Virus record (IMG/VR): IMGVR_UViG_3300045825_000402
Span: 1 to 24,735 of that record
Strand: one strand, 5' to 3'
DNA: 24,735 nt
Origin: a virus
Part shown: piece by piece, positions 1,670-24,735 of the stretch
Layout of the letters: each line of letters starts with the position of its first letter
Position numbering within the stretch: the first letter of the stretch is position 1
The notes under the pieces: generated by a model
Database searches by the model: none
Seen by the model: the letters and a program-made list of their open reading frames with translations, nothing else
What the model was told of the DNA's origin: nothing
Translations under genes and position numbers: made by a program

Positions 1670-1676
1670 GTTTAGC

Positions 1677-5050: not shown

Positions 5051-5073
5051 CCCAAAGGTGGGGAACGTAGGGC

Positions 5074-5280: not shown

Positions 5281-5291
5281 TTGAAAAGGTG
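5275..5291. repeat. Short palindrome CACCTTTT-G-AAAAGGTG
   Basis: An 8-bp perfect inverted repeat with a single central base, formed where the last reverse iteron (5270-5278) meets the next forward iteron (5288-5296). It could be a paired initiator site or a small hairpin ahead of the 58-aa gene. Confidence 0.6.
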
Positions 5292-5311
5292 GGGAAGGTG
5301 AGGAACCTCTC

Positions 5312-5843: not shown

Positions 5844-5852
5844 AAATAGTAT

Positions 5853-5882
5853 TTGACAGCACACTACAAAATAGGGTTAAAT
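5853..5882 (+). promoter_or_regulatory. Late promoter (PR'-like)
   Basis: A perfect -35 TTGACA (5853-5858), 18-bp spacer and -10 TTAAAT (5877-5882). The start would be near 5889, about 25 bp before the terminator stem, giving a short leader RNA as at lambda PR'. It lies directly after the Q-like gene. Confidence 0.6.
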
Positions 5883-5913
5883 CTGCGAAAATGTGTTTCA
5901 GTGTCACTTCAAT

Positions 5914-5945
5914 AAACCCGCAGCCCGAAAGGATGCGGGTTTTTT
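5914..5945 (+). terminator. Intrinsic terminator in late leader (tR'-like)
   Basis: A 9-bp stem AAACCCGCA/TGCGGGTTT (5914-5922, 5934-5942) with an 11-nt loop, continuing into a run of T up to 5945. It ends one base before the HNH gene start. It should stop late transcription unless the Q-like protein acts. Confidence 0.85.
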
Positions 5946-5946
5946 A

Positions 5947-6336
5947 ATGCCAATAGCAGCAGCCAAGCCCTGTAGACATTACGGTTGTAGTGCACTTGTG
6001 CGTGATGCTGGTGGCTATTGCCTCGCACATAAGCGAGCCGTTCAACAGAAGGTCGAGCAACAACGAGAAACATCTAACCAACGCGGCTATGGTTACAAGT
6101 GGCAGCAAGCACGCGCACAGTACCTGCGAGAAAACCCGCTTTGTATGTGCACAGAGTGCCAGGCAGGCTTACTGCGTGTTGTGCCAGCGACTGATGTTGA
6201 TCACATCATCCCGCACAAGGGCAACATGAAGTTGTTCTGGGATAGAAACAACTGGCAAGCACTAAGTAAAAGTTGTCACAGCAAGAAGACAGCTAAAGAA
6301 GATGGTCGCTGGGGGGTAGGGGGTAAAAATCTCTAG
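5947..6336 (+). CDS. HNH endonuclease, packaging-associated
   Basis: A 129-aa protein with an N-terminal Cys/His cluster (CRHYGCS...CLAHKR, residues 9-31) and an HNH nuclease core: a CMCTEC zinc knuckle (68-73), DVDHIIPH (82-89), NNWQAL (100-105) and CHSKKTAKE (109-117). HNH proteins just upstream of terminase genes are known in HK97-like phages (HK97 gp74), where they assist DNA cutting by terminase. The ATG at 5947 follows the terminator U-run; a GTG further upstream would put the terminator inside the gene and is unlikely. There is no clear Shine-Dalgarno. Confidence 0.88.
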   Translation: MPIAAAKPCRHYGCSALVRDAGGYCLAHKRAVQQKVEQQRETSNQRGYGYKWQQARAQYLRENPLCMCTECQAGLLRVVPATDVDHIIPHKGNMKLFWDRNNWQALSKSCHSKKTAKEDGRWGVGGKNL

Positions 6337-6412
6337 CGAGTCAAAACCCTAGACCGGTGGGTTAACCAAATTCTTTCGTGCGGGAGTTATCGGGGTAGGG
6401 GGGGGTAGCAAA
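6311..6412. other. Candidate cos/terminase-binding region with G-rich direct repeats
   Basis: Two related G-rich blocks, GGGGGGTAGGGGGTAAAAAT (from 6311, crossing the end of the HNH gene) and GGGGTAGGGGGGGGTAGCAA (from 6392), lie 80 bp apart between the HNH gene and terS. In HK97 the cohesive-end site lies between the HNH gene and the small terminase gene. Placement supports cos here; the nick sites cannot be read from sequence alone. Confidence 0.4.
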
Positions 6413-6415
6413 TCG

Positions 6416-6435
6416 AAGTGGAGACGTCTCCACTT
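6416..6435. repeat. Perfect 20-bp palindrome
   Basis: AAGTGGAGACGTCTCCACTT is fully self-complementary with no spacer. It lies in the HNH-terS gap beside the G-rich repeats and just before a terminator-like hairpin. A perfect dyad there could be a protein-binding or nicking site for packaging. No T-run follows it. Confidence 0.75.
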
Positions 6436-6450
6436 AAGAGCACTTATCAC

Positions 6451-6478
6451 GGGCGACCTGTTTTGGGTTGCCCTTTTT
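6451..6478 (+). terminator. Terminator-like hairpin before terS
   Basis: Stem GGGCGACC/GGTTGCCC (6451-6458, 6466-6473, one G-U pair), 7-nt loop, followed by five T. It sits 17 bp before the small terminase ATG, inside the late operon, so it would need antitermination or act as a processing or attenuation site. Confidence 0.55.
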
Positions 6479-6494
6479 CATTTGGAGAATTGAC

Positions 6495-7046
6495 ATGGGA
6501 TCAAGAGGGCCGCAAAAGCTTCCCGCCAATGTCCATTATTTGCGTGGAAACGCAAGTAAACTTTCTTCATCTGAATTGCAGGATGATTTCAATCCAGAAG
6601 TCGAGATCCCAAACTGCCCCAAGCATTTATGGGCTGAAGCCAAAAAAGAATGGAAACGCGTATCTGTTGAGCTGGAAGAATACGGCCTGATCTCCAAATT
6701 AGATCGTGCTGCGCTGTCACTTTACTGCCAAGCCTGGGCACGTTTGGTTTGGGCCGAAACGATGATGACGCGCGCGATGGATATCGCCGAAGAAAAACGG
6801 CTCGCTTGCGAAGCAAAAGGGGAAGCATGGACCGGCGGTGACGGCATTATGGTCCCCAGTCCCAACGGCTCTTTGGTCTATTCGCATCATTGGGTAGTTC
6901 AGCGCCGCGCGGCGCAAGAAGTTCACTGGTATTTGCAAAGTTTTGGAATGTCACCCAGCGCGCGCTCACGAGTTAAATCGAGTGACAATCGGCAGCAATC
7001 ATTGCCGCTTGACGGGGGCGGCGAAAATTCATGGGACGCGATTTAA
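6495..7046 (+). CDS. terS: Terminase small subunit, P27 family
   Basis: A 183-aa protein with the P27-type small terminase pattern: an N-terminal MGSRGPQKLPANVHYLRGN, then CPKHLWAEAKKEWKRV...LEEYGLISKLDRAALSLYCQAWARLVWAE (about 40-90), then a C-terminal AAQEVHWYLQSFGMSPSARSRV (about 140-161). It recognises the packaging site and hands DNA to the large subunit. The ATG at 6495 has TTGGAGAA upstream. It overlaps the large subunit gene by 16 bp. Confidence 0.92.
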   Translation: MGSRGPQKLPANVHYLRGNASKLSSSELQDDFNPEVEIPNCPKHLWAEAKKEWKRVSVELEEYGLISKLDRAALSLYCQAWARLVWAETMMTRAMDIAEEKRLACEAKGEAWTGGDGIMVPSPNGSLVYSHHWVVQRRAAQEVHWYLQSFGMSPSARSRVKSSDNRQQSLPLDGGGENSWDAI

Positions 7047-8770
7047 AAATCAGTTTTGGCGATATCGCCACGCAATACGCGCACAATGTAGTTGAGGGCC
7101 GCATCATTGCATGCAAATGGGTGAAGCTGGCAGCTCAAAGGCACCTGAATGACCTGACATTATCAAAAGTCGGTCACTGGAAATATGTATTCAATCCAGA
7201 ACTTGAAGATACCCAAGGTAAAAAATATTTCCCAGCTGAGCGCGTATGTCGCTTTGCTGAACTCATGCCGCACATCAAAGGTGACTGGGCTGCGCAGCGC
7301 AAACTTATTCAACTTGAGCCTTGGCAGATATTCATACTGGCCAGTATTTTTGGCTGGGTAAATCGTTCGACTGGCAAGCGCCGGTTTCGCGTAGCTGATT
7401 TATTCGTGCCACGTAAAAATGCCAAGAGCACGATCGCCAGCATCATCGGACTTTACATGTTTGCGGTAGATGGCGAGTTTGGCGCGGAAGTTTACAGCGG
7501 CGCTACTTCGCAAGACCAGGCCATGGAAGTATTCAGACCTGCGCGATTGATGGCCGGGACGGTGCCCGAGTTTCGCCAGCGTTATAGCATCACGGTCAAT
7601 GTCTCCAATCTATCGGTGACAGAAAATAACAGTAAATTTGAGCCAGTGATTGGTAAACCCGGTGATGGCGCATCACCATCCTGCGCAATCGTAGATGAGT
7701 ATCACGAACACAAAACGCCCGAACTATACGAGACTATGCAAACCGGTATGGGGGCAAGATCACAGCCGCTGATGCTGGTGATTACAACTTCCGGTACCAA
7801 CGTTTCCGGCCCTTGTTACACGCACCAGGTAGAGCTACAAAAGATATTGCAAGGAATGATCGAAAACGATCAGCGCTTTGGCATTATATTTACTATAGAC
7901 GAAGACGACGACTGGACCAGTGATGAAGCGCTGGTCAAAGCCAATCCCAATTTCGGAATTTCAGTTGACGGTGAATTTTTAAAGCTACAGCAACGCGACG
8001 CGGTTGCCGATCCGCGCAAGCAAAATATTTTTAAGACCAAGCATCTGAACATCTGGTGCGCAGCTGCATCACCCTGGATCAATCTTTACAACCTTCAGCA
8101 ATGCGGTGACCCCTCGTTATCACTAGATGATTTTGTAGGCGAAGAATGCATTATCGGCTTGGACCTGGCCTCTACCACCGACATTGCCAGCAAAGTGCCC
8201 GTGTTCAAACGCAATATTAATGGGGTTGATCATTTTTATGCGTTCTCTCATAACTATGTACCGGAGTCGGCAGTACTAAAAGCGGAGAACGTACACTACC
8301 AAGGCTGGGTAAAGTCGGGACATCTGATCGAAACATCGGGCAATATGATCGATCTCGAATACATACAGAACGAGATACTGGATGATACGCACCAAGTGAA
8401 TGTACGCGAAGTTGCCAAAGATCAGTGGGGAGGCCAGCAGCTGGGATCCAACCTCGCAAATCAAGGCATCGAGGTAGTAGATATACCGATGCAAACTCGT
8501 TACCTGAGTGAGCCGATGAAATTTATTGCCGCATTGATCGACGCTGATCCACCGCGCTTTCATCACGATGGAAATCCCGCTTTCATCTGGATGATGAGTA
8601 ACGTCGAAGTGAAGTCGGACCATAACGAAAATATATTTCCGCGCAAGCAAGCCGCGCAAAACAAAATTGATGCTGCTGTTGCACTGATAGTCGCCATGTC
8701 GCGCGCTATGGTGGATGGCAATAGCAAATACCCCGTCATCGACGAAAATTACGAACTTCTGGTGGCTTAA
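7031..8770 (+). CDS. terL: Terminase large subunit
   Basis: A 579-aa packaging motor of the Terminase_1 type. The ATPase half has the variant Walker A VPRKNAKST (126-134) and Walker B CAIVDEYHEH (218-227), with the coupling motif VITTSGT (250-256). The nuclease half has GLDLASTTD (376-384), VAKDQWGG (461-468) and KIDAAVALI (545-553), acidic positions expected for a RuvC-like fold. It cuts concatemers and pumps DNA into proheads through the portal. It overlaps terS by 16 bp and shares one base with the portal start (TAATG). All key motifs appear intact. Confidence 0.96.
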   Translation: MGRDLKISFGDIATQYAHNVVEGRIIACKWVKLAAQRHLNDLTLSKVGHWKYVFNPELEDTQGKKYFPAERVCRFAELMPHIKGDWAAQRKLIQLEPWQIFILASIFGWVNRSTGKRRFRVADLFVPRKNAKSTIASIIGLYMFAVDGEFGAEVYSGATSQDQAMEVFRPARLMAGTVPEFRQRYSITVNVSNLSVTENNSKFEPVIGKPGDGASPSCAIVDEYHEHKTPELYETMQTGMGARSQPLMLVITTSGTNVSGPCYTHQVELQKILQGMIENDQRFGIIFTIDEDDDWTSDEALVKANPNFGISVDGEFLKLQQRDAVADPRKQNIFKTKHLNIWCAAASPWINLYNLQQCGDPSLSLDDFVGEECIIGLDLASTTDIASKVPVFKRNINGVDHFYAFSHNYVPESAVLKAENVHYQGWVKSGHLIETSGNMIDLEYIQNEILDDTHQVNVREVAKDQWGGQQLGSNLANQGIEVVDIPMQTRYLSEPMKFIAALIDADPPRFHHDGNPAFIWMMSNVEVKSDHNENIFPRKQAAQNKIDAAVALIVAMSRAMVDGNSKYPVIDENYELLVA

Positions 8771-13523: not shown

Positions 13524-14180
13524 ATGGCTTATGTCCTATTCACACCTCCGGCCGGCGAACCGCTCGATCTGGCAACTGCACGCCTGCACTTGCGCGCCGA
13601 TCCCAGCGCGCTAGACGATACTTTGATCCTCGCGGCTATCTCAGCCGCCCGTGATGCGGCTGAAAATACTACAGCCAGACAGCTGTGCACCGCAACCTGG
13701 AATCTGGTGATGGATCGTTTCCCGCACGCGGGCAGTATAAGTGGTGGTGTGGGTGATTATTTCCCCAAAAACAGCATTGTTTTGAACAAAAGCCCAGTTC
13801 AATCGGTAGTCGAAATTCGCTATCTGGATATGGGGGGCAGCTGGCAAGTGATGCCGTCGACTGATTACGTGGTCGACACCAGCACCGAACCGGCCAGAAT
13901 CACCCCAGTTTTTGGCAAAATCTGGCCGATTTGTATGCCACAAATCGCCTCGGTAATCATTCAGTTCATCGCCGGTTACGGATCCCCGATTTATTCAGGC
14001 GCATCAATCACCGGCTGGACCGGTAACCCGGTCCCGGCGGGCATATTGAACTGGATGAAATTGCGTGTTGGCAGCTATTACGAATACCGGCAAGAGGCAG
14101 TTGTAATCCCCAAAGGAAAAGTTGAATTGCTGCCGTTTATCGACAGCCTGCTCGATCCCTACATGGTCATCACTTACTAA
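13524..14180 (+). CDS. Head-tail connector, phiE125 gp8 / gp6-like
   Basis: A 218-aa protein starting LFTPPAGEPLDLATARLHLRADPSALDDTLILAAISAARDAAENTTAR (about 5-52), the typical pattern of phage phiE125 gp8/HK97 gp6-like connectors with four-helix N-terminal part, then YLDMGGSWQVMPSTDYVVD and a C-terminal IPAGI-like helix (VPAGILNWMKLRVGSYYEYR, about 174-193). It forms the ring below the portal. The start lacks a clear Shine-Dalgarno, six bases after the previous stop. Downstream genes interrupt the usual order of connector and head-closure proteins. Confidence 0.88.
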   Translation: MAYVLFTPPAGEPLDLATARLHLRADPSALDDTLILAAISAARDAAENTTARQLCTATWNLVMDRFPHAGSISGGVGDYFPKNSIVLNKSPVQSVVEIRYLDMGGSWQVMPSTDYVVDTSTEPARITPVFGKIWPICMPQIASVIIQFIAGYGSPIYSGASITGWTGNPVPAGILNWMKLRVGSYYEYRQEAVVIPKGKVELLPFIDSLLDPYMVITY

Positions 14181-14189: not shown

Positions 14190-14462
14190 ATGATCTACCC
14201 CAAATGGAAATACCGCAAACACCCCGACCTGGGGTTTTTTCAATCCACGCTGGTCACCAGCGCAGAAGCTGAACTCGAGCTCGGCACCGAGTGGGATGAA
14301 GACCCGCAAACAACCGGCTTCAAAGTTCGCCCGGCAAACCATGTGCATGTGAGCCACATTGTTGGCAGCACGCCCTTGCACGAGCTGGCCACCGACGCTG
14401 CTGGCGAGCCAGTACTTGCCGATATCGCCATTACCACGACGGGAGACGCATTAAATGCATAA
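14190..14462 (+). CDS. Hypothetical virion-region protein, 90 aa
   Basis: It starts behind AAAGGAAAAAA. The protein begins YPKWKYRKHPDLGFFQSTLV with a following acidic helix (EAELELGTEWDEDP), then VRPANHVHVSHIVG, and ends in a strand-like DIAITTTGDALNA. Not recognised, although similar short proteins with a YPK.KY opening occur near phage tail and fibre genes. The stop overlaps the next start by 8 bp, so it belongs to the accessory block between the two connector proteins. Confidence 0.65.
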   Translation: MIYPKWKYRKHPDLGFFQSTLVTSAEAELELGTEWDEDPQTTGFKVRPANHVHVSHIVGSTPLHELATDAAGEPVLADIAITTTGDALNA

Positions 14463-14967
14463 CATCAAACGCAGCTGGAAGCTTCGCCTCAATATTCTGA
14501 TTGCCCTGATCGGCATCGGGTTCGAGCAAATGATGTTGCGCCTTGGGCTGATCGCCTGCGCATCGAAACTGAATTACAGCCAGGCGTGCGAACAAGCGCA
14601 GCTGAACGCCACCACCACTACCGTTGGCAATGCCGGATTGCTGTATATTTTTTCAGGCGTGCAACCCGTAGGCCCCGCAGGTGCTGACGGCACATTAGTT
14701 GCCGGGCCCTTTACCATGGGTTCGCCCTTTGCCGCTGGCGCGTCGGCTGCCTTGCCGTCGGTACTCAGCCCCACGCTACCCGCAAACGTTAACGCCTCAG
14801 CGTCAGTGCAACCCACTTGGTGGAGAATTAAAACATCTGCATCGGTTGCTGTGCTAGATGGCAGCGCAGGCATATCCGCCGCCGATATGACAATCGGCTT
14901 ACCAACCTCGGGCCAGCCGGTAGCGCTTACCGGCTTTACCATCACCAGCGGCAACTCCGGGCACTAA
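14455..14967 (+). CDS. Accessory virion protein, beta-rich, 170 aa
   Basis: The ATG at 14455 overlaps the upstream stop and has GGGAG nearby. It opens with a basic and hydrophobic stretch (about 1-32: KRSWKLRLNILIALIGIG..), which could be a membrane or core-binding segment. Two in-frame ATGs at 14530 and 14533 would give a shorter product starting at MLRLGLIA. The rest resembles common phage minor structural proteins with an IYSGAQP-type motif, here LLYIFSGVQPVGPAGADGTLV, then a WWRIKTSASVAVLDGSAG strand region and an ALTGFTITSGNS ending. Expected to be a beta-sandwich on the virion; the precise role is unknown. Confidence 0.65.
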   Translation: MHNIKRSWKLRLNILIALIGIGFEQMMLRLGLIACASKLNYSQACEQAQLNATTTTVGNAGLLYIFSGVQPVGPAGADGTLVAGPFTMGSPFAAGASAALPSVLSPTLPANVNASASVQPTWWRIKTSASVAVLDGSAGISAADMTIGLPTSGQPVALTGFTITSGNSGH

Positions 14968-14969
14968 AA

Positions 14970-15713
14970 ATGGCTGATAACACAGCACAAGGCGGTACAG
15001 CAGTTATCGCGGCGGACGATGTAACCACTTTGAATGGGGCGGCATCATCCGCAGTTTTGGTCCAGCGCGTGAAACCCATGTTCGGGCCGGATAATAGCGC
15101 GCGCGATGTTTCAGGCGCTTACCCGCTACCCGTAGACGAAGACCCGCACCGGAATATTTCATTTTACGGTCGCGGATGCTCTTTCCGCATACCAGGACGC
15201 GCAGGCACCACCGGGCAAAACTTATTTGCCTTACATAATGCAACCGCCTCGCCGATATTTGTTGATCTGGAAAGATTAACGATTGATATGGTACAGACCG
15301 TGATTAAAGCGGTGACGGTCCTGCCTCCACACATCCGCCTATACCGTTTTACTGCCCTGCCAACCGGGGGCGCCGCAATTGCCAAAGCCGCTCGTGATAA
15401 TTTGCTCACCTCCAATGCGGCGACAACACTTTGGCAAGACGCGAGCGCAGACGGCACAATCGCTGCTACAGCCCTTGCCGTAACTACCGCCGGGGGAGTA
15501 CTCACCCAGGCTTTTGCGCCCCGGCTCATCACAGCAGCTGGCTACGAAATTATTGACACACTTCCGTTTCTATCCGGCGTAAACGAGCTGGTTACGCTTG
15601 GGCCGCTGGAAGGGGTAGTTTGCCGATTAGAATATACGCTGGCCACACAAAATCCCGTCACGGATATGTGGACGGTTGATTGCAAGTGGACGGAGTACAC
15701 AAAGAACCTATAA
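14970..15713 (+). CDS. Accessory virion protein, 247 aa
   Basis: The N-terminal 55 residues (ADDVTTLNG...VLVQRVKPMFGPDNSARDVSGAYPLPV) follow a pattern very common in phage structural proteins of the form D-G-xx-QRVK-xxG-xx-G-xx-DVS-xxNPLPV. The remainder is a beta-rich domain of about 190 residues (FRIPGRAGTTGQNLFALHN, VLPPHIRLYRFTALPTGG, LEGVVCRLEYTLATQNP) with no catalytic motif. Likely a fibre, whisker or decoration protein. It begins two bases after the preceding stop without a clear Shine-Dalgarno, consistent with coupled translation. Confidence 0.7.
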   Translation: MADNTAQGGTAVIAADDVTTLNGAASSAVLVQRVKPMFGPDNSARDVSGAYPLPVDEDPHRNISFYGRGCSFRIPGRAGTTGQNLFALHNATASPIFVDLERLTIDMVQTVIKAVTVLPPHIRLYRFTALPTGGAAIAKAARDNLLTSNAATTLWQDASADGTIAATALAVTTAGGVLTQAFAPRLITAAGYEIIDTLPFLSGVNELVTLGPLEGVVCRLEYTLATQNPVTDMWTVDCKWTEYTKNL

Positions 15714-15716
15714 TCC

Positions 15717-16853
15717 ATGTCGCTGCTATTATTATTAAGGGCAGCAAGCGGCGGCACAGGTATCAGCGCCACAATCGCGGCAACCGATGCCGCTGATGTC
15801 AGCGCACTCACCGCAACCGTTTCAAGCGTTACCAGTGCCAGTATCGCCGCAACTGATAGCGCGGATTTAACAGCACTCGCAGCAACTGCCTCAAGCATCA
15901 CCAGTGCCAGCATTTCCGCAACGGATAGCGCAGATTTAACTACAGCCACAGCAGCTAACTGGACCAAAGCTCAAATCGCCGCGGCTGACGGCACAGATTT
16001 AAGCGCACTCGCAGCAACCGCCTCAAGCATTACCAGTGCCAGCATCGCCGCAACGGATAGCCCCGACCTGACGGCACTGTCGGCTGCCGTTTGGACGTCT
16101 GCACAGCTTGCCGCCACCGATGGCGCAGATATTGCGACTGCTACAGCAAGCGCCACCACCGGCGCAGCAATCGCAGCTACCGACACAGCCGATAGCACGG
16201 CTTTAACCGCAGCCAACTGGACCAAGGCTCAAATCGCCGGGGTCGATAGCGCCGATTTAACAGCACTTTCCGCAACAGCAGGATCAGTTACCACTGCCAG
16301 CATCACCGCAACCGAAGGCGCAGATAGTACAGCGACTACGGCAGCGAACTGGCTTACCGTACAAATCGCGGCGACAGACACGCCGGACGCGGCATTAACC
16401 GCATCTTCAATCACTACAGGCGCAAGTGTTGCAACCGTTGACGGCTTTGATTTAACCGCCCTTGCCGGGGCGTTTGGCTCGATTACTACCGCCAGTATTG
16501 CCGCCCTTGACGGCAAAGATGCAGCCGCACTATTCGCGGCAAATTGGGCAACGGCAACGCTGGCCGCCATTGATGCAGCTGATCAGGCGAGTTTGGCCAC
16601 ACGCATTACCACCAGCGCGGCTATTTTTGGTACAGACAGCGCAGACCGCAGCGCCTTAACCACCTCGGGCGCAGTCATCGCCTCGATAGCGTGGATGCGC
16701 TTCAGTCAGACCAAGCGCAGTATGAGTTTTACCCAAAGCAAGCGCAGTATGAGCTTTGCAACAGGCAAACGAGCAATGAGTTTCAGCCAGGCCAAACGCA
16801 ACATGAGTTTTAGCCAGACAAAACGCTACATGAATTTTTTGAGGATTGATTAA
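15717..16853 (+). CDS. Ala/Thr/Ser/Asp-rich repeat protein with basic 9-residue tandem tail
   Basis: A 378-aa protein starting MSLLLLLRAASGG. Residues about 16-322 are some fourteen imperfect repeats of 20-23 residues with consensus SASIAATDSADLTALAATAS, alternating between SSIT and NWTK endings. Residues 327-371 are five tandem 9-residue units of the form M-S-F-[ST]-Q-x-K-R-x, then MNFLRID. The body is acidic, the tail strongly basic. Regular hydrophobic spacing suggests a beta-solenoid or stacked-strand fibre. Related repeat proteins with a MSLLLL start occur near phage virion genes, but no function is established to my knowledge. The DNA of the tail is a 27-bp tandem repeat. Confidence 0.75.
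   Translation: MSLLLLLRAASGGTGISATIAATDAADVSALTATVSSVTSASIAATDSADLTALAATASSITSASISATDSADLTTATAANWTKAQIAAADGTDLSALAATASSITSASIAATDSPDLTALSAAVWTSAQLAATDGADIATATASATTGAAIAATDTADSTALTAANWTKAQIAGVDSADLTALSATAGSVTTASITATEGADSTATTAANWLTVQIAATDTPDAALTASSITTGASVATVDGFDLTALAGAFGSITTASIAALDGKDAAALFAANWATATLAAIDAADQASLATRITTSAAIFGTDSADRSALTTSGAVIASIAWMRFSQTKRSMSFTQSKRSMSFATGKRAMSFSQAKRNMSFSQTKRYMNFLRID
16695..16850 (+). repeat. 27-bp tandem repeat, five full copies plus part
   Basis: Units start at 16695, 16722, 16749, 16776 and 16803, with a partial unit at 16830; each encodes MxFxQxKRx. Third-codon positions differ between copies, so the repeats are old and kept for protein sequence rather than being a recent slippage product. 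Confidence 0.9.
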
Positions 16854-17165
16854 ATGGATGTCGTGAACGAAAAAAGCTCTTCCGATATCACCGTCTCATT
16901 TTTTGACAAAACAGGCACACCCGCCGTCCCGGTATCAATCACCTATAGCACCAAATGTATGACCACCGGCACGGCAATCAAAACCGCCATTGCCGTCACC
17001 CCGGCAGCGGTTATCACGATCAGCCTCGACGCACTGGATTCAGCCATTCAAAACAGTATGAATTCAGTCGAAAACAAATTGCTCACCGTGCAAGCAACCT
17101 ATGGCATATATGATCAGTGCAACGACGATTACACCTGGCAAGTACGCAACATGGCGAGCGCGTAA
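16854..17165 (+). CDS. Hypothetical virion-region protein, 103 aa
   Basis: It starts directly after the stop of the repeat protein and its last base is the first base of the next ATG (TAATG). The protein resembles an Ig-like or fibronectin-like beta-sandwich: DITVSFFDKTGTPAVPVSITYSTKC, VTPAAVITISLDALDSAIQ, LLTVQATYGIYDQCNDDYTWQVRN. No family name is certain. It is the last member of the accessory block and may partner the repeat protein. Confidence 0.65.
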   Translation: MDVVNEKSSSDITVSFFDKTGTPAVPVSITYSTKCMTTGTAIKTAIAVTPAAVITISLDALDSAIQNSMNSVENKLLTVQATYGIYDQCNDDYTWQVRNMASA

Positions 17166-17491
17166 TGGCACAAAACATTGGAGATTTTTGCTACCGGGTA
17201 CAGCTACAGCAAAAAACAGTCAGCAGCGATGCCGTCGGCGGCGTTATCGAAACATGGAAAACGATTGACACCGTTTGGGCCGCTGAAGCCGATTCAACCG
17301 CACGCGAGCAATTTATGGCACAAGCACCCGGCTATCACCTCACTCGCGTTGTGCGCATTCGCTTTCGCAGCGATGTGAACGAGTCCTGGCAGGTGATATG
17401 CCATGACGGGCGTATCGGGCGCATCGGATCGTTAAGTTTAGTTGGTAGGCGTGAGGCCATTGATTTGCTATGCGAGGTCGTCAATCAATGA
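17165..17491 (+). CDS. Head closure / head-tail joining protein
   Basis: A 108-aa beta-barrel protein of the phage head-tail joining (SPP1 gp16-like) family: IGDFCYRVQLQQKTVSSDAVGG (5-26), ETWKTIDTVWAAEADSTAREQFMA (29-52), TRVVRIRFRSDVNESWQVICHDGRIGRIGSL (60-90), EAIDLLCE. It closes the portal channel after packaging and binds the tail. The start is at 17165 in a TAATG junction; a longer upstream frame overlaps the previous gene and is not needed. Confidence 0.88.
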   Translation: MAQNIGDFCYRVQLQQKTVSSDAVGGVIETWKTIDTVWAAEADSTAREQFMAQAPGYHLTRVVRIRFRSDVNESWQVICHDGRIGRIGSLSLVGRREAIDLLCEVVNQ

Positions 17492-17988
17492 ACGATATTC
17501 ATATTACCGGGCTATCCGAATTAAATGAGGCCCTGCAAACCCTGCCCGCAAAGATTGAAGCCAATATTTTGCGCGGGGCCCTCAGGTTCGGACAAAACGT
17601 GATTAAAAATGTAGCCAAGGCGCGCTGCCCGGTAGGTGAACCCAGCGCACAGGCCAAAAAATACGGCGCTTACCCCGGCGCATTGCGCGACTCGATCCGC
17701 GTGAGCGCACGCAGCAGCAAAGGCACGGTAACAGTCAAAGTCACAGCCGGAAATAAAATTGCCTACTATGCGCACATGGCAGAATTTGGCACGCGCCCGC
17801 ATGCCGAACTACCCAGCGGAGCCAAAGCATTATTTGTCGCAGGCCGCTTTAAAATGCAAGTGCAACACCCCGGCGCAATCGCCAAACCTTTCATGCGTCC
17901 CGCTTTCGATAACCACGCCCACGCCGCCATACAAGCCGCTGCTGATTACATGGCGGAACGCATCCCGATCGAGCTGGCAAAAAAATGA
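17488..17988 (+). CDS. Neck/tail completion protein, HK97 gp10 family
   Basis: A 166-aa protein with the HK97 gp10 pattern: ITGLSELNEALQTLPAKIEANILRGALRFGQNVIKNVAKARCPV (4-47), GALRDSIRV, then YYAHMAEFGTRPH and a C-terminal AKPFMRPAFDNHAHAAIQA (131-149). It overlaps both neighbours by ATGA, in the standard order head closure, gp10, tail terminator. It acts at the neck during head-tail joining. Confidence 0.92.
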   Translation: MNDIHITGLSELNEALQTLPAKIEANILRGALRFGQNVIKNVAKARCPVGEPSAQAKKYGAYPGALRDSIRVSARSSKGTVTVKVTAGNKIAYYAHMAEFGTRPHAELPSGAKALFVAGRFKMQVQHPGAIAKPFMRPAFDNHAHAAIQAAADYMAERIPIELAKK

Positions 17989-18386
17989 GCGCCCCCGGAA
18001 AAGTTATTAATTACCTGCTCGACAACGATGCAGGCGTAAGCGCACTGGTGGCCTCGCGCATCTACGCACTCAGAGCGCCGGAAGCCGTTTTAAAACCGTA
18101 CCTCATCATTGCAAAAATCAGCGATGTGCGTGATTTACCCATTGATGCCACCAGCGGACTCATTCCCTGCCAGGCGCGTATGCAAGTGAGCTGCTTCGAT
18201 GCCAGCGCCAATGGCGCAAAAGTGCTGGCTGATGCCGTGCGCCATGCGTGCGATTTAAAGAGCGGCACCATCAACACCGTACCTGTTTCCAGCGTGCTTT
18301 GGGACGGTGATTCGCCCGACGCTTACGATTTCGATGTCAATCTGTACCATCAGCCGGTGGATTTTTTAATTCATTATTATAAGTAG
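17985..18386 (+). CDS. Tail terminator, DUF3168 family
   Basis: A 133-aa protein matching DUF3168 tail completion proteins: VINYLLDNDAGVSALVASRIYALRAPEAVLKPYLII (7-42), RMQVSCFDASANGAKVLADAVRHAC (65-89), and a C-terminal YDFDVNLYHQPVDFLIHY strand pair. It caps the tail tube to fix its length and joins it to the head. ATGA overlap with the gp10-like gene. Confidence 0.92.
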   Translation: MSAPGKVINYLLDNDAGVSALVASRIYALRAPEAVLKPYLIIAKISDVRDLPIDATSGLIPCQARMQVSCFDASANGAKVLADAVRHACDLKSGTINTVPVSSVLWDGDSPDAYDFDVNLYHQPVDFLIHYYK

Positions 18387-18395
18387 GAGATAGCC

Positions 18396-19622
18396 ATGGG
18401 TTTAGCAACAGCAATTTTTAAAACGGTAGCCTATAAACTGGAAACCGTCTTTGGTACTGCCGCCGGGGCCGTTGGTGCGCAGCTTTTACGCCGTACAGAA
18501 TCCAGCCTCACCACCAAGCGCGACCAGTTCAAATCGAACGAAATTCGCACCGACTGGCAGATTGGTGATATTCGCCTGGGCATCCGCCGCGTCGACGGCA
18601 ATATCAAGGGCGATTTATCACCCGGCACCTACAAAGATTTATTTGCCGCCGCCTTGCGCCGTTTATTTGTCGCAGATGCCGCCGCTACAGGGTTGACGAT
18701 TACCATCGCCGCCGGATCAGGCGTAACCTACAGCCTCACGCGCACCGCCGGATCGTGGATTACCGACGGCCTCAACACCGGCGATATCGGGCGCTTCACC
18801 GCAGGCGCTTTCAACGCCGCCAATCTGAATAAAAATTTGCTGGTCGTGGGTGTTTCGGCGCTGGCACTCAACGTGATCGTGCTCAACGGCACCACGCTCA
18901 CCGCAGAAGGCCCCATCGCCACGGCAACCTTTACCCCGACCGGTAAAAAGACCTTCATGCCGTCCACCGGGCACACCGACTCAAGCTTCACCATCGAACA
19001 CTTCTTTTCCGATATTTCGCAATCTGAATTGTTCATGGGGTGCAAGCTGAGCAACTTTGATATTGCCATTCCCGCCTCGGGCCTAGCCACCGTGCAATTC
19101 GGCGTTATCGGGCAAGACATGCAATCCGGCGCCGTGCAGTATTACACCGCACCCAGCGCGGTGACATCGAGCGGGTTCGTAGCTGGCGTGAATGGCGTTT
19201 TATTGGCCGGTACCGGAGCCACTACCCCCATGGCAATCTGCACCGGAGTCAATATCAAGTGCGCACTGAATTTGTCCGGGGATCCCGTCGTGGGCTCGCA
19301 ACACGTCGCCTCACTTTTTCCTGGCATCATGACCGTCACCGGTTCATTCACGGCTTATTTTCAAGATGCCATCATGCGTGATGCGTTCCTGGCCGAAACA
19401 GAGCAAAGCTTAACCATCGCCCTGACCACCAATTCGTCAGCTACAGCCGACTTCCTGGCCTTCACCTTGCCGCGCATCAAAATGACCTCAGCCGACAAAG
19501 CAGATGCCGTCGGCAAAGGCATCGTGCAAACGTTTAATTATGAAGGCCTGATGAATACCAACGGCGGCTTGAGCAACAACGGCGATATCACCACATTAAT
19601 GATGCAAGACAGCTTAGCTTAA
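18396..19622 (+). CDS. Major tail tube protein
   Basis: A 408-aa protein behind AGGAGA, following the tail terminator as usual. The N-terminal region (VAYKLETVFGTAAGAVGAQLLRRTESSLTTKRDQFKSNEIRTD) and the repeated VDGNIKGDLSPGTYKDLFAAAL element match long phage tail tube proteins (Phage_tube_2 type). The middle (about 100-190) looks like an inserted beta domain, as length exceeds compact tube proteins of 150-250 residues, and the C-terminal QTFNYEGLMNTNGG...TTLMMQDS closes the tube domain. It polymerises around the tape measure to form the tail. Confidence 0.9.
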   Translation: MGLATAIFKTVAYKLETVFGTAAGAVGAQLLRRTESSLTTKRDQFKSNEIRTDWQIGDIRLGIRRVDGNIKGDLSPGTYKDLFAAALRRLFVADAAATGLTITIAAGSGVTYSLTRTAGSWITDGLNTGDIGRFTAGAFNAANLNKNLLVVGVSALALNVIVLNGTTLTAEGPIATATFTPTGKKTFMPSTGHTDSSFTIEHFFSDISQSELFMGCKLSNFDIAIPASGLATVQFGVIGQDMQSGAVQYYTAPSAVTSSGFVAGVNGVLLAGTGATTPMAICTGVNIKCALNLSGDPVVGSQHVASLFPGIMTVTGSFTAYFQDAIMRDAFLAETEQSLTIALTTNSSATADFLAFTLPRIKMTSADKADAVGKGIVQTFNYEGLMNTNGGLSNNGDITTLMMQDSLA

Positions 19623-19631
19623 GGACTCCCC

Positions 19632-20036
19632 ATGTTAGACGTAAAAACCATACAAAGCGTGCGTACCGCCCGCATTGAAATCCTGCACCCCGTCACCGGC
19701 CAGCCGCTCGAAGCTTACGTGACGATGTTAAGTAGCGATGCACCGGCGCGGCGCACTGCCTTGCTGGATTATCAGCGCGCCTTACGCCGTATCGGCGAAG
19801 GCGACTCCGAAGATCAGCATGCGCAGCGCACCGCCGCACATTTGCAATATATTTCCACCTGCATTTCGGACTGGGAAGGCATTTCAGATGACGGCCAGCT
19901 GGTCGCGTTTACACCTAACGCCGCCGTGACGCTATTACAACGCCCCGAGCTGGACTGGTTACTGAATCAAATAACCATGCACCTGGTCGATTCAAAAAAC
20001 TTCATCGCCGCCCAGCCGAAAGTCTCCTTGCCCTAG
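19632..20036 (+). CDS. Tail assembly chaperone, G-like
   Basis: A 134-aa protein between the tube and tape-measure genes, where siphoviruses encode gpG. The ATG at 19632 has AAGGA upstream. The N-terminal part has a strand pair (TARIEILHPVTGQPLEAYVTM), then acidic helices and the segment AAVTLLQRPELDWLLNQITMHLVD (97-120). Near its 3' end codons 121-123 read TCA AAA AAC, a canonical -1 slippery heptamer; without slippage translation ends 11 codons later. Confidence 0.85.
   Translation: MLDVKTIQSVRTARIEILHPVTGQPLEAYVTMLSSDAPARRTALLDYQRALRRIGEGDSEDQHAQRTAAHLQYISTCISDWEGISDDGQLVAFTPNAAVTLLQRPELDWLLNQITMHLVDSKNFIAAQPKVSLP
19994..20000 (+). other. Programmed -1 frameshift site A AAA AAC
   Basis: The heptamer A AAA AAC fits X XXY YYZ in the reading frame of the G-like gene. 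The -1 frame is open from here through the T-like frame to 20344. In lambda a slippery site in the same place (G GGA AAG) makes gpGT. A possible weak pairing CGCCGC/GCGGCG lies downstream (about 20006-20011 and 20059-20064). Confidence 0.85.
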
Positions 20037-20344
20037 TACGGCATCATTTCAGCCTGGCGCGGCGTATGCAGGACGGCGCTACCGTACGTGATCATCTGCT
20101 GCAAGTGGCAAAAATTACCGGATCCATCCCGCCCGAATTAATCGAGCCTGAATTATTACCCGGCTGCGATGTGGTATGGCAAATGTTCCTCTCGCTGCAT
20201 AACGGTCGTGATGGCGAAAATAAACCCATATCGTGGCGCGATTTATACGCCTGGCAACAAATCCAGAATTTAAGTTTGGATGTGTTTGAAATAGACCTCT
20301 TGATTGCAATGGATCGAGCCGCTTTGGCGGCATTAAAGGAATAA
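20000..20344 (+). CDS. T-like extension of tail assembly chaperone (GT frameshift product)
   Basis: The -1 frame after the slippery site encodes 114 residues (LHRRPAESLLALVRHHFSLARRM..., ending RAALAALKE). An internal ATG at 20066 would give 92 aa, but the ALVRHHFSLAR stretch before it looks like coding sequence and no ribosome site precedes that ATG, so synthesis as a G-T fusion of about 237 aa is preferred. The GT protein binds tape measure and tube subunits during assembly and is absent from the virion. The tape-measure gene starts two bases after its stop. Confidence 0.82.
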   Translation, partial: LHRRPAESLLALVRHHFSLARRMQDGATVRDHLLQVAKITGSIPPELIEPELLPGCDVVWQMFLSLHNGRDGENKPISWRDLYAWQQIQNLSLDVFEIDLLIAMDRAALAALKE

Positions 20345-20346
20345 CT

Positions 20347-22686
20347 ATGGCAACGGTAATCGGTAGCTTGATTGTCGAAATGAGCGCGAACGTGGCGCGG
20401 CTTCAGACGGACATGAATTCCGCCAAAGACCACGTAAAAACAGCGACTGAAGAAATCACCCGTGCCGCTGAAATGGCAAAGGGTGCACTGGCCGCTTTGG
20501 GCATCGGCTTGGGCTTGAACGAATTCAAAGAATTTATCACCCAATCTATCGAAGCCACGGCGCGTTTGAATGAACTCTCTGTGCGCTCGGGCGTTTCGAT
20601 TCAAGATTTGAACGGCCTGCAATATGCAGCTACCCAAACCGGGGCCAATTTTGAAGATATGACCAAGGGTATTAAAAAACTCTCGTTATATTTAACCGAA
20701 GCCTCAATCAATGGCGGCAAACATGCCGATATGCTGGCAACGCTGGGCATTACTGCCAAAGACCCCATGCAAGCCATGTACCAGCTGGCAGATGCGATGC
20801 AACGCATCCCCGATGCAGCCGAACGCACCTATGTCGCGCAACAGTTACTCGGCAAGGGCGGTGAAGCGATGGTCCCCGCCTTATTGGAGGGTAGCGACGC
20901 TTTTAAAGCGTTAGTTGATCGTGGCAACGAACTCAATCCAATTACAGTCGAATACGCAAAAAACTGTAATGAACTAGCCGACAAAATGGAAGCCCTTGCC
21001 TTTGCAGCCAAAGGCAACGCCACCATATTTGCACAGCAACTGGTTCCCGTTTTAACCCAAATATCTGATGAATTTCTAAAAGCAGGTAACAAGGCGGATG
21101 GATTTACGTTAGCGGGGCAGGGCATTGCGGAGGTCATCAAGACATTGGTAGTTTTAGGTGCGAACGTGGCTTATACCTTTGAACAGGTTGGCAAAGGTAT
21201 CGGCGGCACAGTTGCCCAATTAACGCTACTGGCTCAGGGCGATTTTAAAGGCTTTTCAAAGTTACAAGACATGATGGTTGCTGAAGGTGAGGCGGCACGG
21301 ATCGAAATAGATCGCTTTTCCCAAGCAATCCTGGAAAGCGCGCCCAAACAAGCAGAAGCACTTAAAAAACCCCAAGGCGAAATCATCAAGATTGCCGAAG
21401 AAACCAACACCCTCAACAAATCCATGCAAACGCTGGAACAGCGTATCCAGACCCAAACTGATTTATATAAATTGAGTGCGGACGCGGCCAATAAAGTTTC
21501 AGCTACAGAGAAACTCAGAATCGACGTACAAAACATGGTCATCGCCGGTACGCTGACCCTCTCCACAACCGAGCAGGCACACATTAATGTGATGCTCAAA
21601 AAAATGGCCGCCGCTGAAAAGCTGGCAGGGCAACATGCCGACGAAAGAGCCGCGCAAACCGAAGCACAAAAGATCATCGAAAAGGCCAATAGCTCAGCCG
21701 CCGAATCGATCCAGCAAATTGAGTTTGAGCGCGCCTTGCTGGGTAAAACAACCGAAGAACGCACCCGCTTAACCGCTGCCCGCAATATTGATCTGGCGGT
21801 ACAAAAACAAATTGTCGCCCTCAATGCTAATTCGGTATTAGCCAAAGAGCCCGCTTGGCTTGCCAGTTCTACCGCAGCACTTAAAGCCGAAGCCGCCGCC
21901 GCACTCTTAGCCAAAAACGCTTCACTGGATTTGCAAAAAGCACTTGCCGGGCAAAAGCTGGATAAAGTAGGCACCGAAAACGAACAATACAAAGCCAGAT
22001 TAGATGCGCTTAAGGCTTATCATGTTGCCGCGCAAACAGACGATGCCGATTACAAAGTGCAAGTCCAAAATGCCGAATTAGAGCATCAGAACACACTTAC
22101 TCAGCTGGCACAAAGCGGGCAAATGTCGCGCAATCAATTTGAAAAAATGAGCACGATGTCTCAAATCTCGACCATTTCCGGCCTATTGCAAAACGCCACC
22201 TCACAAGCCGCGCAACACAATAAAATTGCCTTCGAGATTAACAAACAAGCCAGCGCGGCCAACGCCATTATTTCCACGCTGGCCGGCGCAACCAAAGCCC
22301 TCGAGCTTGGGCCAATCGTCGGCCCGATCATGGCCGGGGTCATTTATGCGGCCGGTATGATTAATGTGGCTGCCATTGAGTCATCAACTTTTGGCGGGAG
22401 TAACGCTTCCGGGTCCGCGCCGTCAGCGGGGGGTATTTCATCCACCTCAATTCCCGGGCAAGTCGCCAATCCGCATGTGGTGCCGTCAACTGTGACGGCC
22501 ACCACCGCACCCGCCGTGAACGCCCCCGCGATGCAGCCGGTGAACGTTTACATCCAAGGCAACGTCATGACCGCTGATTTTGTGACGAATACAGTAATCC
22601 CTGAAATCAAAAACCAAATCACTAATGCAGACGTCACCATAATCGACCCGCGCAGCCGTCAGGCGCAGATGCTGGCGGGGGCTTAA
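20347..22686 (+). CDS. Tail tape measure protein
   Basis: A 779-aa protein. It opens with VIGSLIVEMSANVARLQTDMNSAKDHV (4-30), the usual tape-measure start, with a hydrophobic GALAALGIGLGL segment. A helical domain follows (ARLNELSVRSGVSIQDLNGLQYAATQTG), hydrophobic helices lie about 254-300, a long coiled-coil-rich Ala/Glu/Lys region about 340-620, and a hydrophobic ALELGPIVGPIMAGVIYAAGMINVAAI near 656-682 that may enter the host membrane. At roughly 0.15 nm per residue the tail would be near 115 nm. AAAGGA overlaps the previous stop and serves as ribosome site. Confidence 0.95.
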   Translation: MATVIGSLIVEMSANVARLQTDMNSAKDHVKTATEEITRAAEMAKGALAALGIGLGLNEFKEFITQSIEATARLNELSVRSGVSIQDLNGLQYAATQTGANFEDMTKGIKKLSLYLTEASINGGKHADMLATLGITAKDPMQAMYQLADAMQRIPDAAERTYVAQQLLGKGGEAMVPALLEGSDAFKALVDRGNELNPITVEYAKNCNELADKMEALAFAAKGNATIFAQQLVPVLTQISDEFLKAGNKADGFTLAGQGIAEVIKTLVVLGANVAYTFEQVGKGIGGTVAQLTLLAQGDFKGFSKLQDMMVAEGEAARIEIDRFSQAILESAPKQAEALKKPQGEIIKIAEETNTLNKSMQTLEQRIQTQTDLYKLSADAANKVSATEKLRIDVQNMVIAGTLTLSTTEQAHINVMLKKMAAAEKLAGQHADERAAQTEAQKIIEKANSSAAESIQQIEFERALLGKTTEERTRLTAARNIDLAVQKQIVALNANSVLAKEPAWLASSTAALKAEAAAALLAKNASLDLQKALAGQKLDKVGTENEQYKARLDALKAYHVAAQTDDADYKVQVQNAELEHQNTLTQLAQSGQMSRNQFEKMSTMSQISTISGLLQNATSQAAQHNKIAFEINKQASAANAIISTLAGATKALELGPIVGPIMAGVIYAAGMINVAAIESSTFGGSNASGSAPSAGGISSTSIPGQVANPHVVPSTVTATTAPAVNAPAMQPVNVYIQGNVMTADFVTNTVIPEIKNQITNADVTIIDPRSRQAQMLAGA

Positions 22687-23208
22687 ATGCCAGGTCGCAT
22701 CACTTACACCACCACGATTGCAAATACGACCATGCAATCGCCGTTGACCGTGGCGAATGTTTTCGCGCTGAATGATGTATTCGCCATGACCCTGCCGGTC
22801 GGATCGGTGCAGGATATAAATTTATATTGGGGCTATACAGCTAATGACCCGTATTACACCGATGTGCGCAACGTCTCCCGATCCGCGTCGGGCGTAGTCG
22901 AAGTATCAAACTTTGGCTCAACCACCGGCTTCACTTTTTCCTTGGCGAATGTAGTTCAGGACCGAAATGCACAAGTGAATGAATTTGCCGTGCTGAATGC
23001 GCTGAATACTGAGTTGATGGCAGGTACCTTAATGACCTGGTATCCCGATTACGACAATTTCCCAGCTGAATATTATAGCTGTGTCGCCAATCAGCGCCTG
23101 AATGCCAAGCGCATCGGCACCACCTCGCGCTGGCAGTTTGATTTTGATTTGATGGTATTGGCCACCGTGCAATTTCCGTCCACCGTACCCACTTTCGCGC
23201 TGGCTTGA
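22687..23208 (+). CDS. Putative distal tail protein
   Basis: A 173-aa protein starting directly after the tape-measure stop. It is beta-rich with many aromatic residues (DINLYWGYTANDPYYTDV, GFTFSLANVVQ, TWYPDYDNFPAEYYSCVANQRL, WQFDFDLMVLATVQFP). I do not recognise the family, but small beta proteins at this place usually form the distal tail ring joining tube and hub. It is followed one base later by the hub-like gene, so the two are probably coupled. Confidence 0.7.
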   Translation: MPGRITYTTTIANTTMQSPLTVANVFALNDVFAMTLPVGSVQDINLYWGYTANDPYYTDVRNVSRSASGVVEVSNFGSTTGFTFSLANVVQDRNAQVNEFAVLNALNTELMAGTLMTWYPDYDNFPAEYYSCVANQRLNAKRIGTTSRWQFDFDLMVLATVQFPSTVPTFALA

Positions 23209-23209
23209 T

Positions 23210-24735
23210 ATGCTCAATACCAACGCCAACTACCGCGCACAAAACAACGGCCTGACCAAATGGCCAGTATATGTTGCCAAGCTTTTTTTCAATGGCGGCA
23301 AAGACGGTACACCGGGCACGAATGATATTTATTTCGCTACCTGCGATGTGAATAACATTGCCAATTTCCCCTATCCGACACACTGGTTCCCGGTACTCAA
23401 ATCCGATTCAATCAGCTCGATGTCGCAACAAGTCGACCCGATCAATGGCGTATCAACGATTGGCAATATCACCCTGACCGTGACCGATTATCAGGGCTCT
23501 GTCTCAGCCATTATTGCCGCCGCCAATAATGCCGGTCACGGCCTGCGTCGGCAGCGCTTGAGCATTTACAAAATGTTCCAGGGTATGGATTGGGCTGATC
23601 GCGTGTTGGTGCGCACCATGCAGATTCAAGACTTAAAACTTTCAGCCCTGAATGAATACACCATCACCGCAGCAGACGTGCAAAAGCGTTTGCAAAAAAC
23701 CATCTTTAACCCGGCGGCAACGGTCACGAGTGCCACTATTGCAGCCTCTGGCGCAGTCACTTTTGCAGTGGACAATGCGCGCAAATTTTTACTCTCAACC
23801 TCAGTTACGTATGGAACAAGCGGATTTATACAGATAGACAGTGAGATTATGCGCTGGACTGTTGCATCTATCAGTAGCTTCACTGTTGCCGCAGTTGATC
23901 GCGGGATACTCGGAACCACAGCCGCCGCGCACGCCGTAAATGCCAACGTAACCGAAGTGATTTATCTGAACGAAAACCCGATCACCATGGCGCTGAAGCT
24001 CATGGAATCTTCCGGTACCGCCCTGGCGAATGGCGCTTATGATGCCTACCCGGCGCACTGGGGTTGCGGTATGGATAGCACCAATGACGTAATGGAAGCG
24101 GATTGGCTGCAAGTCGGCCAGCTGCTTACCGGGCTATCAGCCGTTACCCCGCTGCCTGCGAATGGCCTACAATTCGAGTTTGTGATTAACAAAGGCATTG
24201 TCGCGAAAAAGTTCATCGAGGACTCAATACTAAAAATATTAGGGGCTTTTGGCTTTGTGCGCGGCGATGGCAAATATTCGATTCGCGCCTACAACGATAT
24301 TTCAAACGCCATTAAAGAAAATTGTGCCATTCAGCTCACCCGCGATAACGTCACGCTCTGGGGTGATTTGAATTACAACTATCCTTCCCTGGCAAACCAG
24401 CTCCAAATTAATTATGACGAAGAACCAAAATTGTCGGGTAAATATATCCGCTCAACACTTTTTATTGATGCCGCCTCAGTTAAAAAATGGGGCGATGCAC
24501 CGCAATTAAGCTACAACGCGCAGGGCGTACCGCCTACCTCAGTTTTTATCAAGCAGCTATACCAGCGGTTCCAGCGTGTGCTGGCGCGCTATTCGCGTCC
24601 ACCTATGCAAATATCGCTTACGTTAATGCCCAAGCTGAATACACTGGAAATTGGCGACATGGTGCGTGTCACGTTGCCGATCCGTGATTTAGTCACCGGC
24701 CTGACACTGGATCGTGCGTTTGAAGTGCTCTCGAC
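23210..24735 (+). CDS. Tail tip/baseplate hub-like protein, 3' end outside window
   Basis: An open frame from the ATG at 23210 to the window edge, 508 whole codons without a stop. It begins MLNTNANYRAQNNGLTKWPVYVAKLFF. It has beta-rich segments typical of tail hub proteins (ISSMSQQVDPINGVSTIGNITLTVTD at about 76-101, a KMFQGMDWADRVLV strand pair), an inserted small domain at about 174-240 with GFIQIDSEIMRW and VDRGILGTTAAAH, a motif frequent in phage tail-tip proteins, and later LEIGDMVRVTLPIRD near 482-496. It likely forms the hub at the tail end that holds fibres. The gene name cannot be set without the C-terminus. Confidence 0.8.
   Translation, partial: MLNTNANYRAQNNGLTKWPVYVAKLFFNGGKDGTPGTNDIYFATCDVNNIANFPYPTHWFPVLKSDSISSMSQQVDPINGVSTIGNITLTVTDYQGSVSAIIAAANNAGHGLRRQRLSIYKMFQGMDWADRVLVRTMQIQDLKLSALNEYTITAADVQKRLQKTIFNPAATVTSATIAASGAVTFAVDNARKFLLSTSVTYGTSGFIQIDSEIMRWTVASISSFTVAAVDRGILGTTAAAHAVNANVTEVIYLNENPITMALKLMESSGTALANGAYDAYPAHWGCGMDSTNDVMEADWLQVGQLLTGLSAVTPLPANGLQFEFVINKGIVAKKFIEDSILKILGAFGFVRGDGKYSIRAYNDISNAIKENCAIQLTRDNVTLWGDLNYNYPSLANQLQINYDEEPKLSGKYIRSTLFIDAASVKKWGDAPQLSYNAQGVPPTSVFIKQLYQRFQRVLARYSRPPMQISLTLMPKLNTLEIGDMVRVTLPIRDLVTGLTLDRAFEVLS

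What the first reader, a model, noticed from the sequence alone, without database searches (positions are those of the whole stretch)
15717..16853. Repeat protein with SASIAATDSADL-type repeats and a basic MSFSQxKR tail
Some fourteen 20-23-residue repeats, acidic and Ala/Thr/Ser-rich, come in two alternating endings (SSIT and NWTK). They are followed by five tandem 9-residue units with a regular aromatic and two basic residues. The strong charge contrast suggests a fibre with a basic docking end, perhaps onto the acidic head surface or DNA. DNA repeats are diverged at synonymous sites, so the protein repeat is under selection. Repeat number may vary and tune length.
Basis: partly seen in the sequence, partly recalled or inferred. 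Interest (0 to 1): 0.6.

Follow-up and report, generated by a model that had tools for sequence, protein, structure and literature searches.

The report
Modular phage fibre of 21-residue repeats
A bacterial virus carries a long protein built from fourteen copies of a 21- or 23-amino-acid unit, most likely a swappable surface fibre, and similar 21-unit proteins often sit beside the same small connector gene in many other viruses.

Summary
Window 15717-16853 encodes 378 aa: 14 units of 21 or 23 aa with an invariant Asp, then five basic 9-aa units. The gene ends a four-gene cassette (14190-16853) that also occurs in an otherwise unrelated phage at 79-93% DNA identity. Relatives keep the units but change their number and swap the ends or add a LamG lectin domain. 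The cassette's 170-aa protein is a relative of the phage 7-7-1 garland protein (profile E 9.4e-8; structural Z 8.6), a fold also seen in a phage neck. Unexpected: among viral contigs chosen by this connector family alone, 34 of 59 encode a 20-23-aa-periodic frame (31 at exactly 21) within 4.5 kb downstream, against 1 of 142 control windows (a lambda ORF beside the tail genes). Best reading: a modular adhesion fibre mounted through a garland/whisker-type connector. A basic docking tail is not supported: the tail is the least conserved part, absent even from the relative whose connector is 92% identical. The fibre's fold (pLDDT 54), its place on the virion and what it binds remain unknown.

The parts
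13524..14180 (+). head-tail adaptor (Ad1-like), the gene just before the cassette
   Evidence: PHROG 442/40, E 1.5e-13 / 1.1e-7
14190..14462 (+). cassette gene 1, 90 aa, no family found; present in front of the connector in L006, L011 and L012
14455..14967 (+). cassette gene 2, 170 aa, garland/whisker-type connector ('bead')
   Evidence: PHROG 3758 E 6.3e-13; profile of 14 relatives vs PDB 9rkv_A E 9.4e-8; Foldseek 4.3e-4 prob 1.00; VIA Z 8.6, 3.0 A over 123 residues
14970..15713 (+). cassette gene 3, 247 aa; relatives found only next to repeat proteins that begin MSLLLL
15717..16853 (+). repeat protein, 378 aa (the finding)
15717..15767 (+). N-terminal segment MSLLLLLRAASGGTGIS, shared with L002 and (first part) L011; inferred attachment end
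15768..16679 (+). 14 repeat units of 21 or 23 aa (shaft)
16695..16829 (+). five basic 9-aa units M-[RS]-F-x-x-x-K-R-x; variable C-terminal module
16854..17165 (+). 103-aa protein of unknown role, the gene just after the cassette
   Evidence: only weak PHROG 396, E 0.038; none at E 0.01
17117..17491 (+). head closure (Hc1-like)
   Evidence: Pfam Phage_HCP E 1.7e-18; PHROG 25 E 2e-16

Best explanation
The protein is the shaft-and-tip polypeptide of a modular virion fibre. Its 21/23-aa units (two predicted strands per unit, one invariant Asp) make a rod whose length changes by whole units; its N-terminus attaches it, through the 170-aa garland/whisker-type connector and the 247-aa partner of the same cassette, to the neck or tail; its C-terminus carries an exchangeable end module, here the basic aromatic 9-aa units, that most likely meets the host surface or another phage-specific partner. 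The cassette moves as a unit between phages with different head and tail genes. Shown: repeats, cassette, its transfer, connector homology and fold, unit-number change, module swapping, statistical link of 21-aa repeats with this connector family. Inferred: rod shape, polarity, attachment through the connector, adhesion. Unknown: neck, tail or head, oligomer, ligand.
For: Unit regularity. Cassette shared with contigs 3300045825_000407/_000256 at 79.4% over 904 bp and 92.5% over 708 bp, with no other DNA similarity to the window outside the cassette (the two contigs are taken as one virus because they abut inside the same gene). Repeat relatives in 8 of 16 examined contigs, with LamG lectin (Pfam E 9.8e-9), with an inserted hydrolase-like domain (L027, my reading, no Pfam hit), beside a GH10-like gene (L011, E 2.1e-5). 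Connector = garland relative; 9rkv_A is 7-7-1 gp014, which the paper places around the tail fibres. In named phages this connector family lies among tail or fibre genes. Connector-only sample: 34 of 59 loci with a 20-23-aa periodic frame within 4.5 kb; 15 of 21 periodic protein clusters have period 21 (3 of the 15 are minus-strand frames, probably shadows of the coding strand).
Against: AF2 of the repeat protein is poor (pLDDT 54) and matches no solved fold. No structural or proteomic evidence that this protein is in a virion. PHROG labels the connector family 'head and packaging', at odds with its tail neighbours. 25 of 59 connector loci show no such repeat, and 7 of 14 named connector phages show none at 20-21. 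Controls are classical phages, not matched environmental contigs.
Confidence: 0.6

Rival explanations
1. The basic 9-aa tail is the string of a bead-on-string network: each 9-aa unit threads or caps one dimer of the 170-aa connector, as the BW3 chain threads A511 connector dimers.
For: The connector's fold family works that way in A511 and is thought to in Milano (paper PMC10811340). In 4 of 4 Vibrio phages examined, a tandem 7-aa motif is shared by the Mu gp48-like wedge protein and the gene after the connector (E 1.9e-6, 7.3e-6, 1.4e-7, 0.004), so short tandem motifs do recur on partners of this connector.
Against: L002 has a 92%-identical connector but no such tail; no second carrier of the 9-aa motif in the window phage; the Vibrio motif sits at the N-terminal end of the fibre, not the C-terminal end.
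Confidence: 0.13
2. One reading: the tail docks the fibre onto the acidic head surface or onto DNA.
For: Charge contrast 12 K/R to 1 D/E in the last 53 residues.
Against: The tail is the least conserved part and is absent in all relatives outside this phage; the conserved end is the N-terminus.
Confidence: 0.1
3. Low-complexity spacer: the repeats are a flexible Ala/Thr/Ser linker and the link with the connector only reflects that both are common in fibre modules.
For: Poor AF2 model; different repeats fill the same slot in L024; the only control hit was lambda orf-401 beside the tail genes.
Against: Asp invariant in 43 of 43 21-aa units, strict length rule, no adjacent Trp units, period 21 kept in proteins that the window-based profile does not recognise.
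Confidence: 0.17

Closest known systems
Garland proteins gp014/gp012 of Agrobacterium phage 7-7-1 and gp125/gp127 of Milano, and the T4 gp8 / A511 gp105 connectors they are compared with
   Same: The cassette's 170-aa protein is homologous to gp014 by profile and fold. Downstream of the 7-7-1 garland genes lie gp010 and gp009, both with period-21 repeats.
   Different: Those are myophage baseplates; the window phage is siphophage-like with the cassette among neck genes. A match to T4 gp8 or A511 gp105 was not obtained here; that comparison is the Milano paper's.
Neck whiskers of Shigella phage Sf14 (gp30/gp31)
   Same: 9c39_K, 108 residues, aligns to the connector with Z 6.7, 3.0 A over 106 residues; gp31 is 110 aa; whiskers hang on the adaptor (PMC11821841), and the window cassette follows an adaptor gene.
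   Different: No significant sequence similarity; Z under 8 may be only a common arrangement; assignment of chain K to gp31 rests on length.
Neck fibre of Anabaena phage A-1(L), gp82-gp81-gp80
   Same: Modular extended fibre with a distal carbohydrate-binding domain (PMC10966104, passages).
   Different: Made of about 14 separate gp81 trimers, not of repeats in one chain; no sequence link tested.
Repeat proteins of other connector phages, e.g. Vibrio phage 367.14 (EQPDALTASGTLTNSG units)
   Same: Period 21, next to a connector gene.
   Different: Window-unit profile does not score it above shuffles (2.7 bits against shuffle maximum 7.6).

Membership tests
garland-type connector (for the 170-aa cassette protein) | sequence profile similarity to 7-7-1 gp014 (9rkv_A) | tested here: met
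   E 9.4e-8 with 14 relatives; 0.047 with 6
garland-type connector (for the 170-aa cassette protein) | same fold | tested here: met
   top Foldseek hit 9rkv_A E 4.3e-4; Z 8.6, 3.0 A, 123 aligned; model pLDDT 69.7
garland-type connector (for the 170-aa cassette protein) | forms dimers that sit on tail fibres | not testable with these tools
   no complex prediction or virion data
T4 gp8 / A511 gp105 (BW3TFN) | structural match to those chains | tested here: inconclusive
   not among the rows listed; the link is the Milano paper's statement
21-aa repeat fibres linked to the connector | period of 21 (or 21/23) residues | tested here: met
21-aa repeat fibres linked to the connector | within a few genes downstream of a phrog_3758-type gene | tested here: met
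   connector ends 14967, repeat gene starts 15717
21-aa repeat fibres linked to the connector | sequence relation to units in the other phages | tested here: inconclusive
   16 of 34 repeat frames score more than 5 bits above the best of 50 shuffles; Vibrio, 7-7-1, OLIVR4, Send513 and V501 proteins do not
phage receptor-binding fibre | virion location and host binding | not testable with these tools
   inferred from neighbours and domains only
any Pfam or PHROG family (for the repeat protein) | profile match at E 1 or better | tested here: not met
   0 families in each

The most novel reading that the evidence does not exclude
Phages of unrelated hosts (Vibrio, Agrobacterium, Mycobacterium, many environmental ones) share one mounting system: a garland/whisker-fold connector paired with a fibre whose chain repeats every 21 residues. 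The period is conserved although unit sequences have diverged beyond recognition, because each unit must match a fixed beta geometry. In 7-7-1 the downstream period-21 proteins gp009/gp010 would then be candidates for the unidentified garland glue or capsid fibres.
Probability: 0.33. Interest if true: 0.78.

Novelty: new variant of a known kind. Interest (0 to 1): 0.6.

Why it matters
If right, it ties a frequent, unnamed low-complexity repeat in phage genomes to a structurally known connector, so that thousands of 'hypothetical' genes could be read as one fibre system. It also names testable candidates (gp009, gp010) for components that the 7-7-1 and Milano structural papers say are unknown, and shows a fibre cassette moving between phages with unrelated virions.

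Tried and rejected
Designed armadillo and ankyrin proteins came up for the repeat protein in the PDB sequence search (best E 5.3e-4). I reject these as Ala-rich composition matches: the AF2 model is strand-rich, not helical. Foldseek of that model gave nothing at E 0.001 or better; its best rows are S-layer RsaA at E 0.37, not used because the model is low-confidence. No phage record matched the repeat protein, the 247-aa or the 103-aa protein by tblastn, nor the window by megablast; BLAST's low-complexity filter was on.

The genome-contig scan with the connector found 103 pattern matches but no relative, so prophage copies were not seen; only two peptide patterns were used. T4 gp8 and A511 gp105 did not appear among structural matches. 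A shared short motif between proteins of the window phage, as in the Vibrio phages, was sought and not found. The same call shows no shared tandem motif in the other loci whose rows I could read; part of its output was cut.

Whole-gene dN/dS among window units is saturated and not relied on. PHROG's 'head and packaging' label for phrog_3758 is doubted, not disproved. Three literature searches for a 21-residue phage repeat or repeat fibres gave no paper describing it; most subscription papers are not held.

Limits of the period statistics: connector contigs are partly near-duplicates (393 proteins fall into 219 clusters). The controls are eight classical phage regions (lambda, Mu, HK97, D29, VHML, D3, parts of T4 and Sf14), and T4 and Sf14 themselves carry proteins of the same fold or proposed fold (gp8, gp31). 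In one search none of 240 control proteins had best period 20-23 (lambda orf-401 peaked at 35), while by the frame-based test that same ORF gave 21. Of 80 connector loci, 21 with under 2 kb downstream were dropped before the 34-of-59 count.

Full report
1. What is there. The frame 15717-16853 codes for 378 residues. After MSLLLLLRAASGGTGIS come 14 units, five of 23 and nine of 21 residues (the last unit's length is taken as 21). A chain of 14 Asp-type sites at 21/23 spacing compares with at most 3 in 5000 shuffles. In the 43 21-residue units of window, L002, L011 and L013 the tenth residue is Asp in all 43. Units with Trp near the end never follow each other in eight related proteins (0 of 84 adjacent pairs), so the real repeat is a pair of units. 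Then come five 9-residue units with Phe and Lys-Arg at fixed places. Pfam and PHROG have no match at E 1.

2. The cassette. Four genes, 14190-16853, lie between an Ad1-like adaptor (13524-14180) and a 103-aa gene followed by head closure, neck and tail-tube genes. Two contigs of metagenome 3300045825 carry the same four genes between a terminase-like gene and a different portal: 79.4% identity over 904 bp and 92.5% over 708 bp inside the cassette, and no other stretch similar to the window outside the cassette. They abut inside the 247-aa gene and are taken here as one virus, which is inference. In L011 the cassette precedes a tail-tube-like gene, in L013 it precedes a portal-like gene, and in L014, a phage otherwise like the window's, the connector gene comes right after the protease and the first bases of the capsid-gene region. 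So the cassette travels and is not tied to one genome position.

3. What varies. Window, L002 and L011 share the N-terminus and the 247-aa neighbour; L013, L022, L025 and L027 have neither. C-termini differ in all. L022 adds a LamG lectin domain (Pfam E 9.8e-9); L017 begins with the end of a LamG-type protein like L024's (by eye); L027 has a domain inserted between units that I read as SGNH-hydrolase-like from its motifs (recalled; Pfam has no hit). L025 and L027 share both ends but have 4 and 8 units. L002 has a 195-bp three-unit tandem duplication, 87.7% identical. Length change by whole units and module swapping are therefore seen directly.

4. The connector. The 170-aa protein (14455-14967) belongs to phrog_3758. 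A profile of 14 relatives finds 9rkv_A at E 9.4e-8. The predicted fold (pLDDT 69.7) has 9rkv_A as top match (Foldseek E 4.3e-4; Z 8.6, 3.0 A over 123 residues). The sequence of 9rkv_A agrees with 7-7-1 gp014, which the 7-7-1 paper (abstract, sections 8 and 10 and passages read) describes as garland around short and long tail fibres. The Milano paper (section 12 and passages read) says the garland fold resembles T4 gp8 and A511 gp105, that A511 dimers sit like beads on an extended chain, and that the string in Milano is unknown. Next in structure are neck chains of Sf14 and Bas63 (Z 6.7 and 6.6); by length the Sf14 chain is probably gp31, which the paper (passages read) calls a whisker protein hung on the adaptor. 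At Z under 8 this is suggestive only. In 12 annotated or translated named phages the connector lies among tail, fibre or minor-tail genes in most.

5. Period 21 follows the connector. In 25 connector loci, 16 of 214 proteins are strongly periodic (z at least 5, lags 8-40): 11 at 21, one at 23 (the window), one at 20, two at 9, one at 18. Some of these loci were found through the repeat, so I drew a second set by the connector alone, with a query made from Vibrio, Agrobacterium and Rhizobium connectors: 80 loci. There 21 of 219 protein clusters are periodic, 15 of them at 21 (three of these on the minus strand, probably shadows), and one each at 20, 22 and 23. Of 59 loci with at least 2 kb downstream, 34 have a same-strand frame of period 20-23 within 4.5 kb, 31 of them exactly 21; 25 have none. 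Controls: 3 of 240 proteins periodic, none at 20-23; 1 of 142 strand-specific 4.5-kb windows, lambda orf-401, which I recall as part of the side tail fibre gene. Sixteen of the 34 repeat frames score more than 5 bits above the best of 50 shuffles with a profile of window-type units. Proteins of 7-7-1, OLIVR4, Send513, Vibrio 367.14 and V501 keep the period without that likeness. Of 14 named phages picked through the connector, six have a period-21 neighbour, one has period 20, seven have none at this threshold, one of these being cut by the record end.

6. Mechanism. The simplest account is a fibre with an N-terminal mount, a repeat shaft and an exchangeable end. The mount is put at the N-terminus because that end co-varies with the 247-aa partner and is shared where the connector is shared, while the tail is not; in Vibrio 367.14 too the motif shared with the wedge protein is at the N-terminus of the repeat protein. 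The wedge identity rests on Pfam Phage_Mu_Gp48 (E 1.9e-8, 2.7e-5 and 8.1e-6; no Pfam hit in the fourth phage) and PHROG 203 in four of four. The basic tail would then face outwards; Lys/Arg with regular Phe would suit binding of acidic polysaccharide, but that is conjecture. Whether the fibre stands on neck, tail or head is open: gene order favours the neck, connector relatives favour tail or neck, and PHROG's label says head.

7. What failed or speaks against. The repeat protein's model is poor, no solved fold matches it, and no data show it in a particle. The controls are not matched. A string role for the tail is not excluded but has no support in this phage.

8. Verdict. Observation confirmed; interpretation partly supported. 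New variant of a known kind: phage fibres with tandem repeats are known, but I found no description of this 21-residue class or of its link with garland-type connectors in the searches I made.

Noticed in passing
L042 (contig 3300045993_000710, 7500-20000): 3880-7208: The window phage carries a diversity-generating retroelement: a reverse transcriptase (RVT_1 E 1.3e-17) with template repeat 5980-6076 and variable repeat 5452-5548 at the end of a tail-side gene; 9 of 9 mismatches fall on template adenines.
   Followed up: partly
L015 8503-8630 and 12110-12290; L032 5411-5480 and 7690-7760; L034 8412-8490 and 10680-10750; L035 8411-8500 and 10690-10770 (approximate): In four Vibrio phages a tandem 7-aa motif (xQDG or AGEP type) is shared between the Mu gp48-like wedge protein and the gene after the connector, which is a wedge subunit in two of them tested and the 21-aa repeat protein in 367.14.
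   Followed up: partly
L030 6964-7986 and 7980-9407 (phage 7-7-1 gp010, gp009): Both structural-protein genes just downstream of the garland genes have period-21 repeats and basic C-termini; candidates for unidentified garland or capsid-fibre parts.
   Followed up: partly
L024 1404-3467: A LamG-domain protein in the same slot carries a different repeat (PxGVQ-type units) in place of the D..D units.
   Followed up: no
window 1-6354 and 15151-24735: Contig 3300045993_000710 matches both window ends exactly, so the two records are overlapping pieces of one phage, apparently circular or permuted, with a tyrosine integrase-like gene at L042 9516-10511 (by eye).
   Followed up: no
L016 13946-15046 (-): Pseudanabaena phage Pan4 has a reverse-strand frame with strong 9-aa periodicity (z 24.9), unrelated to the finding.
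   Followed up: no
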